Assembly: GCF_002163625.1 (NCBI RefSeq)
Contig: NZ_CP020892.1
Span: 3,534,001 to 3,598,000 of the forward strand
Origin: Pseudomonas sp. M30-35
GTDB taxonomy: Bacteria > Pseudomonadota > Gammaproteobacteria > Pseudomonadales > Pseudomonadaceae
Length of the DNA stretch: 64,000 nucleotides
Reading direction: 5' to 3'
Below the pieces are notes generated by a model. The model was not told where the DNA came from. It made no database searches and saw only the letters and a program-made list of their open reading frames with translations. Every line of letters starts with the position of its first letter. Positions within the stretch are counted from its first letter, which is position 1. This document shows, in pieces, positions 36,371-40,544 of the stretch. The translations under genes and the position numbers were made by a program.

Positions 36371-37063
36371 ATGACCTACCAACTCAATGATCGCCCAGTC
36401 GATTGGCAACCTGTGGCTCGGCCAGAGCGCGTGGTATTGCAAGGCAAATTTGTGCAGCTGGAACCACTCGATGCCAGCCGCCACGGCGATGACCTGTGGC
36501 ACGCACTGCAAGGCCCGGACTCCGACCCGAAGTTGTGGGCTTACCTGGCGGTTGGGCCATTTCTTGAACGCGCAGAGTTCGATGCTTGGCTCGCCGCCAA
36601 TCAGGCCAGTGCCGACCCGCTGTTCTTTAGCGTGATTGATAAAGCCAGCCAGCGTGCAGTCGGCCTGCTCAGCTATCTGCGAATCACCCCGAAAGACGGC
36701 ACCATTGAGATTGGCCACATCGCCTTTGGCCGTGTCATGCAGCGCTCACCGGGCTCAACTGAAACCCTTTGGCTACTGGCCAATTATGCAATGAGCGAAC
36801 TGGGTTACCGCCGACTGGAGTGGAAGTGCAATGCGCAAAATGCCCGCTCAATGCGCGCCGCCGAACGCCTTGGTTTTGTACAGGAAGGTATATTCCGCCA
36901 ACACATGGTGGTTAAAGGCTGTAACCGTGATACCGCGTGGTTCTCGATAGTCGACAGTGAATGGCCACGCTGCCGTGATGCCTTCAAACGCTGGTTGGAT
37001 GACGCTAACTTCGATAGCAACGGCCAGCAGATCAACAGCCTTGAAACGCTGCGCAAGCAATAA
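36371..37063 (+). CDS. RimJ/RimL-type GNAT acetyltransferase
   Basis: This 230-residue acetyltransferase is of the RimJ/RimL branch. It starts MTYQLNDRPVDWQ and contains LQGKFVQLEPLDASRHGDDL, then VGLLSYLRITPKDGTIEIGH (strand pair), NYAMSELGYRRLEWKCNAQN and SMRAAERLGFVQEGIFRQHM. It begins 14 bases after the other GNAT gene, so the three genes form one operon. Members with this architecture acetylate N-terminal amino groups or small amines; the substrate is not known. REP and IS110 sequences start directly after the stop codon. Confidence 0.88.
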   Translation: MTYQLNDRPVDWQPVARPERVVLQGKFVQLEPLDASRHGDDLWHALQGPDSDPKLWAYLAVGPFLERAEFDAWLAANQASADPLFFSVIDKASQRAVGLLSYLRITPKDGTIEIGHIAFGRVMQRSPGSTETLWLLANYAMSELGYRRLEWKCNAQNARSMRAAERLGFVQEGIFRQHMVVKGCNRDTAWFSIVDSEWPRCRDAFKRWLDDANFDSNGQQINSLETLRKQ

Positions 37064-37066
37064 TCC

Positions 37067-37160
37067 GCAGGGCGGACCAACGCGAAGCTTGTCCACCAGA
37101 CATCAACAAACAACCAAGCTCTGCGCCGCAAACGGCGGACAGAAAAGCGCTGTCCGCCCT
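37067..37160. repeat. REP pair (BIME), unit 1 of the array
   Basis: The forward unit GGGCGGACCAACGCGAAGCT, then TGTCCACC, is separated by about 37 bases from the inverted unit GGCGGACAGAAAAGCGCTGT, then CCGCCCT. The inverted unit loses its last two head bases (AC) because the IS110 element has inserted between CT and AC. The pair begins three bases after the stop codon of the GNAT gene. Confidence 0.85.
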
Positions 37161-37204
37161 TGTATCTCGACTACTGCTTATTTTAGAGCGATAGTTCCCG
37201 ATTG

Positions 37205-37360
37205 ATCCTCGGGGGAGCGAGTGCAAGCCGTGTCCGCCCTAAAGCTTCGAGCTTGTAACGTAGATAGCGCTGCACTCCTCCGCACTCATCCAGTAAGTCC
37301 GAACGGTATCCTGAGCCTCGAGCTCGCATCAGCAAGGTTGGACGGATGAAGTGATGATCG
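37205..37360 (+). ncRNA. Predicted bridge RNA of IS110 copy 1
   Basis: Two consecutive stem-loops lie in the 5' non-coding end. The target loop (37214-37281) is closed by GGAG(C)GAGTGCA and TGCACTCCTCC. It holds TGTCCGCCCT (37231-37240), identical to the left target flank including core CT, and CGTAG (37259-37263), complementary to core plus right flank CTACG. The donor loop (37283-37353) is closed by TCATCC/GGATGA and GTCC/GGAC. It holds ACGGTATC (37303-37310), identical to the element's right end, and CAAG (37333-37336), complementary to CTTG at core and left end. The order matches the bridge RNA of IS621. The transcript ends are approximate. Confidence 0.82.
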
Positions 37361-37386
37361 ACCTAACTCAATGAGGAGTAAGCGTC

Positions 37387-38361
37387 ATGACGATAGTTGT
37401 CGGCATCGACATAGCTAAACAGACCTTCGATATCGCCACTCTGCAAGATAACGGCAAGTACCGCACCAAAGCCAAGCTGAGTAATAACGCTGCGGGCTTT
37501 GAGGTCTTTCGGCAGTGGCTGCTTAAGCACGCTGAAGCCGATGCCTGGGTCGTAATGGAGGCCACTGGCATCTATCACGAAGCTTTGGCTGAGTGGCTGT
37601 TTAAGCTGGGTTACCGTGTTTGCGTCCTTAACCCCGCACAAATGGCCTATTACGCTCGCAGCCAGCTGCAGCGGGTAAAGACGGATAAAGTCGATGCCAA
37701 GCTCATCGCTGACTATGGCCGCAGGCATCAGACCGAACTACGAGCTTGGCAGCCTGAGCAGCCTTCTATTCGCCGTCTGAAAGCGTTAGTGCGCCGTTTG
37801 AAGGATTTGCAGGAGCTGGAGCAAATCGAACAAAACCGCCTAGATGTGACCAACGAACAGAAGGTCAGGGCGTCAATTGAATCGGTGCTTGAGCACTTGC
37901 GTCAACAAATCGATGAAACGCTAAAGGCGATCAAACAGCACTTCGATGACAACGACGATCTACGCGGCCAGCGAGACCTGCTAACCAGTATCGACGGCAT
38001 TGCGGACAGAACCGCAGCGCTTGTACTGGCGGAGTTGGGCGATATCGAACGCTTCGAAAGCAGCCGTGCGGTCACGGCCTTTGCCGGACTTAATCCCAGG
38101 TTACAAGAATCAGGAATGCTCAAAGGTCATGTGCGGATATCGCGCATGGGCTCAGTTAGGTTACGCGCCGGGCTTTATATGCCAGGTATCGTATCCATCA
38201 CTCGTAACCCCGCTATTCGGGCACTGGCTGAGCGAATGAGAGCCAATGGCAAAACGGGTAAACAGATCATCTGCGCAGCTATGCGCAAGCTGCTCTGCAT
38301 TGCCTACGGAGTACTAAAATCCGGAAAACCATTTGACCCTCTTCTCGCTATTGCAAGATGA
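37387..38361 (+). CDS. IS110-family DEDD transposase (copy 1)
   Basis: This 324-residue recombinase has an N-terminal RuvC-like DEDD domain. The acidic residues are in VVGIDIAKQTF near residue 7, VVMEATG near residue 58, and KTDKVDAKLIADYG near residues 98-112. A coiled-coil stretch (LKDLQELEQIEQNRLDVTNE) is central. The C-terminal Tnp domain includes LTSIDGIADRTAALVLAELG and VRISRMGSVRLRAGLYM with the expected catalytic serine. The protein would work with the bridge RNA to join donor and target DNA. GAGGAG lies nine bases before the ATG. Confidence 0.95.
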   Translation: MTIVVGIDIAKQTFDIATLQDNGKYRTKAKLSNNAAGFEVFRQWLLKHAEADAWVVMEATGIYHEALAEWLFKLGYRVCVLNPAQMAYYARSQLQRVKTDKVDAKLIADYGRRHQTELRAWQPEQPSIRRLKALVRRLKDLQELEQIEQNRLDVTNEQKVRASIESVLEHLRQQIDETLKAIKQHFDDNDDLRGQRDLLTSIDGIADRTAALVLAELGDIERFESSRAVTAFAGLNPRLQESGMLKGHVRISRMGSVRLRAGLYMPGIVSITRNPAIRALAERMRANGKTGKQIICAAMRKLLCIAYGVLKSGKPFDPLLAIAR

Positions 38362-38398
38362 GGATCAAGACGGTATCTACGGAATAAACATCAGCCGC

Positions 38399-38492
38399 GT
38401 AGGGGGTGACAACGCGAAGCTTGTCCACCAGTCATCAACAAACAACCAAGCTCTGCGCTGCAAATGGCGGACAGAAAAACGCTGTCCGCCCT
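38399..38492. repeat. REP pair (BIME), unit 2 of the array
   Basis: GTAGGGGGTGACAACGCGAA, then GCTTGTCCACC, forms the forward unit; GGCGGACAGAAAAACGCTGT, then CCGCCCT, the inverted unit, again interrupted before AC by an IS110 copy. It follows the 20 bases ACGGAATAAACATCAGCCGC, whose first two bases restore the head of unit 1 and which recur after copy 2. The unit differs at several positions from units 1 and 3. Confidence 0.85.
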
Positions 38493-38536
38493 TGTATCTC
38501 GACTACTGCTTATTTTAGAGCGATAGTTCCCGATTG

Positions 38537-38692
38537 ATCCTCGGGGGAGCGAGTGCAAGCCGTGTCCGCCCTAAAGCTTCGAGCTTGTAACGTAGATAGC
38601 GCTGCACTCCTCCGCACTCATCCAGCAAGTCCGAACGGTATCCTGAGCCTCGAGCTCGCATCAGCAAGGTTGGACGGATGAAGTGATGATCG
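38537..38692 (+). ncRNA. Predicted bridge RNA of IS110 copy 2
   Basis: It carries the same two stem-loops as copy 1 shifted by 1332 bases. The target guides TGTCCGCCCT and CGTAG are at 38563-38572 and 38591-38595, and the donor guide ACGGTATC is at 38635-38642. One difference, C for T at 38624, falls in the internal loop of the donor stem and leaves the guides unchanged. The guides again match the flanks of this copy. Confidence 0.8.
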
Positions 38693-38718
38693 ACCTAACT
38701 CAATGAGGAGTAAGCGTC

Positions 38719-39693
38719 ATGACGATAGTTGTCGGCATCGACATAGCTAAACAGACCTTCGATATCGCCACTCTGCAAGATAACGGCAAGTACCGCACCA
38801 AAGCCAAGCTGAGTAATAACGCTGCGGGCTTTGAGGTCTTTCGGCAGTGGCTGCTTAAGCACGCTGAAGCCGATGCCTGGGTCGTAATGGAGGCCACTGG
38901 CATCTATCACGAAGCTTTGGCTGAGTGGCTGTTTAAGCTGGGTTACCGTGTTTGCGTCCTTAACCCCGCACAAATGGCCTATTACGCTCGCAGCCAGCTG
39001 CAGCGGGTAAAGACGGATAAAGTCGATGCCAAGCTCATCGCTGACTATGGCCGCAGGCATCAGACCGAACTACGAGCTTGGCAGCCTGAGCAGCCTTCTA
39101 TTCGCCGTCTGAAAGCGTTAGTGCGCCGTTTGAAGGATTTGCAGGAGCTGGAGCAAATCGAACAAAACCGCCTAGATGTGACCAACGAACAGAAGGTCAG
39201 GGCGTCAATTGAATCGGTGCTTGAGCACTTGCGTCAACAAATCGATGAAACGCTAAAGGCGATCAAACAGCACTTCGATGACAACGACGATCTACGCGGC
39301 CAGCGAGACCTGCTAACCAGTATCGATGGCATTGCGGACAGAACCGCAGCGCTTGTACTGGCGGAGTTGGGCGATATCGAACGCTTCGAAAGCAGCCGTG
39401 CGGTCACGGCCTTTGCCGGACTTAATCCCAGGTTACAAGAATCAGGAATGCTCAAAGGTCATGTGCGGATATCGCGCATGGGCTCAGTTAGGTTACGCGC
39501 CGGGCTTTATATGCCAGGTATCGTATCCATCACTCGTAACCCCGCTATTCGGGCACTGGCTGAGCGAATGAGAGCCAATGGCAAAACGGGTAAACAGATC
39601 ATCTGCGCAGCTATGCGCAAGCTGCTCTGCATTGCCTACGGAGTACTAAAATCCGGAAAACCATTTGATCCTCTTCTCGCTATTGCAAGATGA
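38719..39693 (+). CDS. IS110-family DEDD transposase (copy 2)
   Basis: The 324-residue protein is identical to that of copy 1; the coding differences are synonymous (T for C in GATGGC at 39327, and GATCCT instead of GACCCT near the end). All DEDD and serine residues are intact, so both copies could be active. The stop codon is 15 bases from the right end of the element. Confidence 0.95.
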   Translation: MTIVVGIDIAKQTFDIATLQDNGKYRTKAKLSNNAAGFEVFRQWLLKHAEADAWVVMEATGIYHEALAEWLFKLGYRVCVLNPAQMAYYARSQLQRVKTDKVDAKLIADYGRRHQTELRAWQPEQPSIRRLKALVRRLKDLQELEQIEQNRLDVTNEQKVRASIESVLEHLRQQIDETLKAIKQHFDDNDDLRGQRDLLTSIDGIADRTAALVLAELGDIERFESSRAVTAFAGLNPRLQESGMLKGHVRISRMGSVRLRAGLYMPGIVSITRNPAIRALAERMRANGKTGKQIICAAMRKLLCIAYGVLKSGKPFDPLLAIAR

Positions 39694-39730
39694 GGATCAA
39701 GACGGTATCTACGGAATAAACATCAGCCGC

Positions 39731-39825
39731 GTAGGGTGGACAACGCGAAGCTTGTCCACCAGATATCGACAAACAACCAAGCTCTGCGCTGCAAATGGTG
39801 GACAGAAAAGCGCTGTCCACCCTAC
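39731..39825. repeat. REP pair (BIME), unit 3, with intact heads
   Basis: GTAGGGTGGACAACGCGAAG, then CTTGTCCACC (39731-39760), and the inverted unit GGTGGACAGAAAAGCGCTGT, then CCACCCTAC (39797-39825), form the complete, uninterrupted pair. Its head GTCCACC-CT-AC differs from the guide TGTCCGCCCT at one base and has no IS110 inserted. It ends 12 bases from the moaE stop. Confidence 0.88.
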
Positions 39826-39837
39826 CGTTGACTGGAC

Positions 39838-40293
39838 TTAATCCTGCTTCCAGCGTTGCGCTGCTTGTTGGTCGCTGCAACGCCCCTCGACCCAGCGCGG
39901 GCCGTCTGCGGTGTCTTCTTTTTTCCAGAATGGCGCACGGGTTTTCAGATAATCCATGATAAAGGCACAGGCCTCGAAGGCTGCGTCACGATGAGCACTG
40001 CTGGTTCCGACAAACACAATCGGTTCACCGGGTTCCAGCCGGCCAATGCGATGGATCAACTCGACCTTGAGTAACGGCCAGCGCTCGGCAGCCTCATCAA
40101 CAATTTTGCCAAGCGCCTTTTCGGTCATGCCGGGAAAATGTTCGAGGAACATGCCGCCGACATCACGTCCATCGTTGAAGTCGCGTACATAACCCACAAA
40201 GGTCACTACGGCGCCGACACCGAGATTTTGCGCGTGCAGTGTGTTGAGTTCGACTCCAGGGTCGAACGCATCAAGCTGAACCCGAATGCTCAT
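39838..40293 (-). CDS. moaE: MoaE, large subunit of molybdopterin synthase
   Basis: MoaE, with thiocarboxylated MoaD, inserts sulfur into cyclic pyranopterin monophosphate to make molybdopterin. The 151-residue protein shows GAVVTFVGYVRDFNDGRDVG near residues 27-46, HRIGRLEPGEPIVFVGTSSA near 80-100, and HRDAAFEACAFIMDYLKTRA, then PFWKKE, which carries the conserved lysines. It is the last gene of moaC-moaD-moaE, two bases after moaD. REP unit 3 follows the stop. Confidence 0.93.
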   Translation of the reverse strand: MSIRVQLDAFDPGVELNTLHAQNLGVGAVVTFVGYVRDFNDGRDVGGMFLEHFPGMTEKALGKIVDEAAERWPLLKVELIHRIGRLEPGEPIVFVGTSSAHRDAAFEACAFIMDYLKTRAPFWKKEDTADGPRWVEGRCSDQQAAQRWKQD

Positions 40294-40295
40294 CG

Positions 40296-40544
40296 CTAGC
40301 CTCCGGTGACCGTTGGGAAAAACGCCACTTCATCACCTTCAGTCACGGCTTCATCGAGGCTGCACAGCTCTTGATTGCGCGCGCACATTAAATTCTGCTC
40401 AGCCAGCACCTGCCAGACGCCACCGCGCGCCAACAAAAACTCACGCACGTCGTTAAGCGTGGCGAAGCTGGCACTGTTGCTCAGTTGCTCACCATCAAGG
40501 CCCAAGGCTTCACGGTAGCGGGCAAAGTACTGCACACGAATCAT
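40296..40544 (-). CDS. moaD: MoaD, sulfur-carrier subunit of molybdopterin synthase
   Basis: MoaD is the small ubiquitin-like subunit that carries the thiocarboxylate used by MoaE. The 82-residue protein starts [20 protein letters not shown] and ends in the required double glycine (FFPTVTGG). The start codon overlaps the moaC stop by four bases (ATGA), which suggests translational coupling. It lies between moaC and moaE in the same leftward operon. Confidence 0.93.

What the first reader, a model, noticed from the sequence alone, without database searches (positions are those of the whole stretch)
37205..37360. IS110 element encodes a bridge RNA whose guides match its own REP target and its own ends
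Seen directly: the 5' non-coding end of both IS110 copies folds into two consecutive stem-loops. In the first loop, TGTCCGCCCT (37231-37240) equals the ten bases left of the element including core CT, and CGTAG (37259-37263) is complementary to CTACG on its right. In the second loop, ACGGTATC equals the element's right end and CAAG is complementary to CTTG at its left end. The target-then-donor order, the guide positions and the CT core agree with the IS621 bridge-RNA model. The guide is thus programmed for a chromosomal REP head, so a dispersed repeat serves as a family of docking sites.
Basis: partly seen in the sequence, partly recalled or inferred. Interest (0 to 1): 0.88.

Follow-up and report, generated by a model that had tools for sequence, protein, structure and literature searches.

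The report
REP-targeting IS110 element with bridge RNA
This is a jumping gene of a known family that appears to carry its own guide RNA, and in this bacterium the guide matches, letter for letter, the small repeated sequence into which each intact copy has inserted.

Summary
Two 1218-bp IS110-group elements (37161-38378, 38493-39710) carry a left-end RNA sequence with a 5' stem-loop, a target loop and a donor loop, laid out as in IS621. Stems covary over 19 relatives (22 of 46 pairs change on both sides). The left target guide is 9 nt including core CT (reader: 10). Of 50 non-redundant copies with 14 guides, 48 have a left flank identical to their guide; 0 of 100,000 shuffles reach this. The right guide is less exact (39 of 50 over 4 nt). 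All 8 intact copies in this genome sit at TGTCCGCCCT|CTAC on a REP hairpin; two exact sites are vacant, and all 26 one-mismatch sites with intact core are vacant. A related genome agrees: 8 of 8 left flanks match. The two window copies have different sequence lineages, so they are probably independent insertions into neighbouring REP-array units; the third unit, one guide base off, is empty. REP targeting by IS110 elements, bridge RNAs, and a bridge RNA for the REP-targeting ISPpu10 are published. Verdict: a new, well-documented member of a known kind. No transcript was tested.

The parts
37161..38378 (+). IS110-group element, copy 1 (one CT core, 38377-38378, counted in; 1218 bp; the flanking left CT is 37159-37160)
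38493..39710 (+). IS110-group element, copy 2 (left CT 38491-38492, right CT 39709-39710)
37387..38361 (+). recombinase gene of copy 1, 324 aa
38719..39693 (+). recombinase gene of copy 2, 324 aa, identical protein
37197..37353 (+). predicted bridge RNA of copy 1 (5' stem-loop 37197-37213, target module 37214-37281, donor module 37283-37353); transcript ends not known
37232..37240 (+). left target guide GTCCGCCCT (9 nt with core CT)
37259..37263 (+). right target guide CGTAG (four bases, GTAG, pair with CTAC)
37303..37310 (+). left donor guide ACGGTATC, equal to the right end of the element
37328..37336 (+). right donor guide AT-N3-CAAG, complementary to CTTGTAT at the left end with a gap
   Evidence: layout as in passages
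38529..38685 (+). predicted bridge RNA of copy 2 (copy 1 shifted by 1332)
37134..37160 (+). REP hairpin and head (target, left half) of copy 1
38466..38492 (+). REP hairpin and head (target, left half) of copy 2
39797..39825 (+). third unit of the REP array, head TGTCCACCCTAC, one guide mismatch, vacant
38351..38378 (+). right-end half of a promoter-like pair (TTGCAA, then TATCT) that would be completed by T37161 in the excised circle; weak consensus match, inference

Best explanation
An IS110-group insertion sequence that works as an IS621-type bridge-RNA recombinase. Shown here: a left-end sequence with covarying stems; a 9-nt left target guide identical to the left flank across relatives; a donor loop matching the element's own ends; a recombinase aligning with all five IS621 catalytic residues; occupancy confined to exact guide matches among intact copies of this genome. 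Inferred from IS621: the element excises as a circle, the joined ends complete a promoter, the bridge RNA is made and bound by the recombinase, it pairs the circle junction with a REP head CCCT|AC, and strand exchange at the CT core inserts the element. Since the guide fits one REP-head variant, the element spreads over that subset of a dispersed repeat.
For: Protein family and catalytic residues. Structure: 97.1% of cells paired, 22 of 46 pairs with both-side changes against a shuffled mean of 9.2, 0 of 500. Guide-flank identity 48 of 50 copies, 14 guides, 0 of 100,000 permutations; with the worst flank chosen for the two mixed groups still 94 of 98 positions and 0 of 100,000. Own genome: 8 of 8 intact copies exact; 8 of 10 exact sites filled, 0 of 26 one-mismatch sites with intact core; p 1.5e-6, or 5.4e-6 with the window pair counted once. 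G077: 8 of 8 left flanks exact, 12 exact sites vacant, none of 288 one-mismatch matches filled; p 1.7e-8 for 6 of 18 against 0 of 288. Junction promoter layout in 19 of 19 representatives, read from the output.
Against: No transcript, no biochemistry. Right guide: 39 of 50 agree over 4 nt, 19 of 50 over 5 nt; all 7 P. batumici copies used have a right-guide mismatch. Two copies sit at sites with 3 and 1 left mismatches; one of four G012 copies has one mismatch (by eye). The decayed copy at G000:C1:4428035 lies at GATCCACCCT|CTAAAA, off the present guide, but its own guide region is deleted. The donor module alone folds no better than shuffles; the count of further pair types is not above shuffles (376 of 500). 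The junction promoter scores only 7-9 of 12, had no shuffle control, and an equally weak match (8 of 12) lies in the linear left end.
Confidence: 0.93

Rival explanations
1. The recombinase protein itself recognises REP hairpins, by shape or sequence, and the guide-like bases are a coincidence or an old copy of flank.
For: All 8 intact copies of this genome lie beside a REP hairpin; IS110 REP targeting was described before guides were known (PMC1525189 passages).
Against: Among REP heads only exact guide matches are filled: 8 of 10 against 0 of 26, also within one array. Guide and flank change together over 14 guides.
Confidence: 0.04
2. The two window copies come from one insertion followed by tandem duplication of the REP unit, so they are one event, not two.
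For: Same right flank for the first bases, same orientation, period 1332 bp; vacant REP arrays do exist as tandem units (L123).
Against: Copy 1 is identical to L083 and L084, copy 2 to L085; the two differ at 37294, 37995 and 38337. Gene conversion could produce the same pattern. The selectivity test survives counting the pair once.
Confidence: 0.2
3. The left-end structure is only a regulatory leader of the recombinase mRNA (or a template for antisense RNA, as described for ISPpu9), and not a guide.
For: PMC8450116 (abstract and passages) reports two small RNAs and an inhibitory 5'-UTR structure in ISPpu9, another REP-inserted IS110 element.
Against: A leader has no reason to track the chromosomal flank base for base. 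Both roles could coexist.
Confidence: 0.03

Closest known systems
IS621 (E. coli) bridge-RNA recombinase
   Same: Group, catalytic residues, left-end RNA with 5' stem-loop, target then donor loop, CT core, 9-nt left guide, AU-N3-CAAG right donor guide, REP target (passages of PMC11208160 and PMC11208158)
   Different: Different guide and REP sequence; recombinase aligned with gaps over residues 5-318, clearly divergent; no transcript or activity shown here
ISPpu10 and ISPpu9 (Pseudomonas putida)
   Same: IS110 family, inserted into Pseudomonas REPs with 2-bp direct repeats, 7 of 7 copies each (PMC1525189 passages); ISPpu10 has a published predicted bridge RNA (legend in PMC11208160)
   Different: Their sequences were not compared directly here; the present element's name in ISfinder, if any, is unknown to me
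ISPa11 and IS1111-group seekRNA elements
   Same: Short RNA from the non-coding end with matches to both target strands; ISPa11 targets a P. aeruginosa REP (PMC11187229 passages)
   Different: RNA lies downstream of the gene in that group and the two matches are in the reverse order

Membership tests
IS110 group (IS621-like) | Recombinase with PF01548 (DEDD RuvC-like) and PF02371 | tested here: met
   107.8 and 73.6 bits, both over cut-off; NF033542 225.2 bits, cut-off 140
IS110 group (IS621-like) | Catalytic D11, E60, D102, D105, S241 of IS621 | tested here: met
   D8, E58, D100, D103, S242 in the alignment
IS110 group (IS621-like) | Long left non-coding end, short right end | tested here: met
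   226 and 17 bp
IS110 group (IS621-like) | Bridge RNA with two loops, target before donor | tested here: met
   covarying consensus structure; predicted, not seen as RNA
IS110 group (IS621-like) | Left target guide matches the insertion flank | tested here: met
   48 of 50 copies; 8 of 8 intact copies here
IS110 group (IS621-like) | Right target guide matches the right flank | tested here: inconclusive
   39 of 50 over 4 nt; met for this element's 8 copies, but the flank hardly varies
IS110 group (IS621-like) | Donor guides match the element's own ends | tested here: met
   invariant, so no covariation test
IS110 group (IS621-like) | Circular intermediate with promoter across the joined ends | tested here: inconclusive
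   weak promoter-like layout in 19 of 19; no circle observed
IS110 group (IS621-like) | RNA transcribed and bound by the recombinase | not testable with these tools
   no expression data held
Rfam family | Match to a curated RNA family | tested here: not met
   one hit only, sn3060, E 0.82, below its gathering score, outside the left end

The most novel reading that the evidence does not exclude
Over the lineage guides follow local REP heads, so REP divergence would drive guide evolution. Each insertion also parts the CTAC (GTAG) foot from the REP hairpin, which would take that REP out of service for REP-type transposases.
Probability: 0.35. Interest if true: 0.5.

Novelty: new member of a known kind. 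Interest (0 to 1): 0.33.

Why it matters
Bridge RNAs are being developed as programmable recombinases. Genomes with many near-identical REP heads offer a ready-made specificity test: here one guide mismatch separates filled from empty sites, apparently even within one array. Fourteen natural guides with matching flanks among elements of one lineage are a resource for studying natural re-programming, and for asking whether REP divergence drives guide change. REP targeting, bridge RNAs and guide-target covariation are themselves already in print, so the gain is in detail.

Tried and rejected
Rfam search of 36500-40500: one chance match, no bridge-RNA family. Promoter scan of 37100-37450: none at its threshold; a looser script was then used on the circle junction. 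REP-associated transposase (Y1_Tnp, PF01797): none found in this genome (0 of 1; the control genomes rang in 5 of 14), so I could not tie these REPs to a transposase. Two-mismatch pattern hits were not used because the reversed-pattern control gave as many (275 against 312). Another IS110 type in this genome, two copies of 365 aa, showed no REP head at the flanks by eye. Plasmid collection: one relative, 64.8% identity. Structure prediction and protein-database searches were not used, since a solved relative was found by sequence.

What the counts leave out. Of 80 loci, 29 with a whole left end were used, 51 partial ones were not. Of 30 loci, 5 repeat this genome's copies, 2 are partial, 23 went in; not every match row was given a locus. 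With 8 own copies and 2 further G077 copies that makes 62. The script could not place the guide in 4 (all G012), leaving 58; 8 were dropped as the same genome held twice, leaving 50. The 4 G012 copies read by eye: 3 exact, 1 with one mismatch. Element starts and right ends were found with a fixed motif, so conservation of those motifs is not a result. In one search the two mixed guide groups were represented by their exact copy; one search repeats the test with the mismatched copy.

Full report
What is there. The window holds two copies of a 1218-bp IS110-group element, 1332 bp apart in the same orientation. Each has a 226-bp non-coding left end, a 324-aa recombinase gene and a 17-bp right end. 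The recombinase matches PF01548 and PF02371, the NCBIfam model 'IS110 family RNA-guided transposase' and, among solved structures, IS621 and ISCro4. The five catalytic residues of IS621 named in PMC11208158 (passages) align with D8, E58, D100, D103 and S242 (the two-residue numbering offset of the chain was inferred from D11).

The RNA. The left end folds into a 5' stem-loop (37197-37213), a target module (37214-37281) and a donor module (37283-37353). The target module folds better than all 200 shuffles (z -3.8); the donor module alone does not (z -0.4; 66 of 200). Comparison is stronger. Over 19 left ends 97.1% of cells pair; 22 of 46 pairs have both-side changes (shuffled mean 9.2; 0 of 500 as high); sliding partners by 1-3 columns gives at most 42.9% paired and 5 such pairs. 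One measure, further pair types, is not above shuffles (376 of 500). The structure was derived from the same alignment, which favours it.

The left guide. It is GTCCGCCCT (37232-37240). In 50 non-redundant copies with 14 guides the 9-nt guide equals the left flank in 48, and in each of the 48 the matching place in the left end is the guide. With one pair per guide group, 98 of 98 non-core positions agree (94 of 98 if the mismatched copy stands for the two mixed groups); 100,000 shuffles reach at most 80 in both versions. The base just outside agrees in 10 of 50, an internal control for the guide's edge. Exceptions: L005, 3 mismatches; L031, 1 mismatch; both keep the six bases up to and including the core. 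Outside this count, 3 of 4 G012 copies agree by eye.

The right guide and donor guides. The right flank begins CTAC in 48 of 50, so the right guide can hardly covary. It agrees over 4 nt in 39 of 50 and over 5 nt in 19 of 50; all 7 P. batumici copies used depart at the fourth base. The donor guides match the element's ends in both window copies and are invariant in the alignment, so they are consistent with the model but untested by variation.

Sites in this genome. The genome (4.93 Mb, one contig) has 8 intact copies and one decayed copy. The 8 have TGTCCGCCCT on the left, CTAC on the right, and a GGACA...TGTCC hairpin at the left flank (34 and 39 matches on the two strands against 2 and 0 for the reversed control; 40 places after merging). 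Two TGTCCGCCCTAC sites are vacant; both are REP hairpins. Of 37 one-mismatch sites, 8 are the element's own guide DNA and 3 have a broken core; 26 remain, all vacant. Exact 8 of 10 against 0 of 26: p 1.5e-6; 5.4e-6 with the pair counted once. The decayed copy lies at GATCCACCCT|CTAAAA, off the present guide, but has lost its guide region.

A second genome. In G077, whose recombinase is 81% identical, 7 whole copies and one remnant all have ACCCACCCT on the left; one whole copy has CTGC on the right instead of CTAC. Twelve exact ACCCACCCTAC sites are vacant; 288 one-mismatch matches (reversed control 70, so part are background or core changes) hold no element.

The pair in the window. Copy 1 is identical to L083 and L084, copy 2 to L085; they differ at 37294, 37995 and 38337. 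They sit in the first two units of a three-unit REP array; the third carries TGTCCACCCTAC, one base off the guide, and is vacant. The simplest reading is two independent insertions with the mismatched unit spared; gene conversion after tandem duplication is not excluded.

How it probably works (inference by analogy with IS621). The element leaves as a circle. Joining its ends gives TTGCAA-17-TATCTT with the second hexamer over the core; TTG and TATCTT keep this spacing in 19 of 19 representatives, read from the output. The match is weak (7-9 of 12), had no shuffle control, and another 8 of 12 match lies in the linear left end. [quoted passage not shown] The RNA would then align the circle junction with a REP head, and recombination at CT would insert the element, leaving the hairpin on the left and CTAC on the right.

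What is known. IS110 insertion into REPs (IS621, ISPpu9, ISPpu10, ISPa11): PMC1525189 (abstract and passages). Bridge RNAs, covariation with 5,511 targets, low mismatch tolerance, a predicted ISPpu10 bridge RNA: PMC11208160 (passages and legends). SeekRNAs and natural re-direction: PMC11187229 (passages). Small RNAs of ISPpu9: PMC8450116 (abstract and passages). I saw no report of near-exhaustion of exact sites or of sparing within an array in the listings, but those papers were not read whole.

Host. Not named. Handles G078 and G011 of the same genus have contig lengths equal to records of Pseudomonas batumici and Pseudomonas sp. TH43, so the host is a Pseudomonas in the wide sense (inference).

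Verdict. Observation and interpretation are right in substance; this is a new member of a known kind, most useful as a natural specificity experiment.

Noticed in passing
L089/L124 (G000:C1:4428037-4429053): A ninth, decayed copy (about 94-95% identical) in which most of the bridge RNA and the start of the gene are deleted; it sits at GATCCACCCT|CTAAAA, off the present guide.
   Followed up: partly
G000 whole genome: No Y1_Tnp (PF01797) gene was found, so the REPs here may lack a REP-type transposase (controls rang in 5 of 14 genomes).
   Followed up: partly
window 37231-37242, and the same place in the other 7 intact copies: The element's own guide DNA (TGTCCGCCCTAA) is one base away from a full target; no insertion into it was seen.
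   Followed up: no
L131 (G077:C1:3536331): Remnant with only the first bases of the left end beside an exact ACCCACCCT flank.
   Followed up: no
L129/L130 (G077:C1:1424269-1424450): Two copies of the G077 element head to head, their left ends about 150 bp apart.
   Followed up: no
L146, L147 (G000:C1:4166498 and 2999049): Another IS110 type (365 aa), two copies; flanks show no REP head of this kind by eye.
   Followed up: partly
window 37134-37158: The REP hairpin stays whole directly upstream of the element and scores as terminator-like; it might shield the element from read-through.
   Followed up: no
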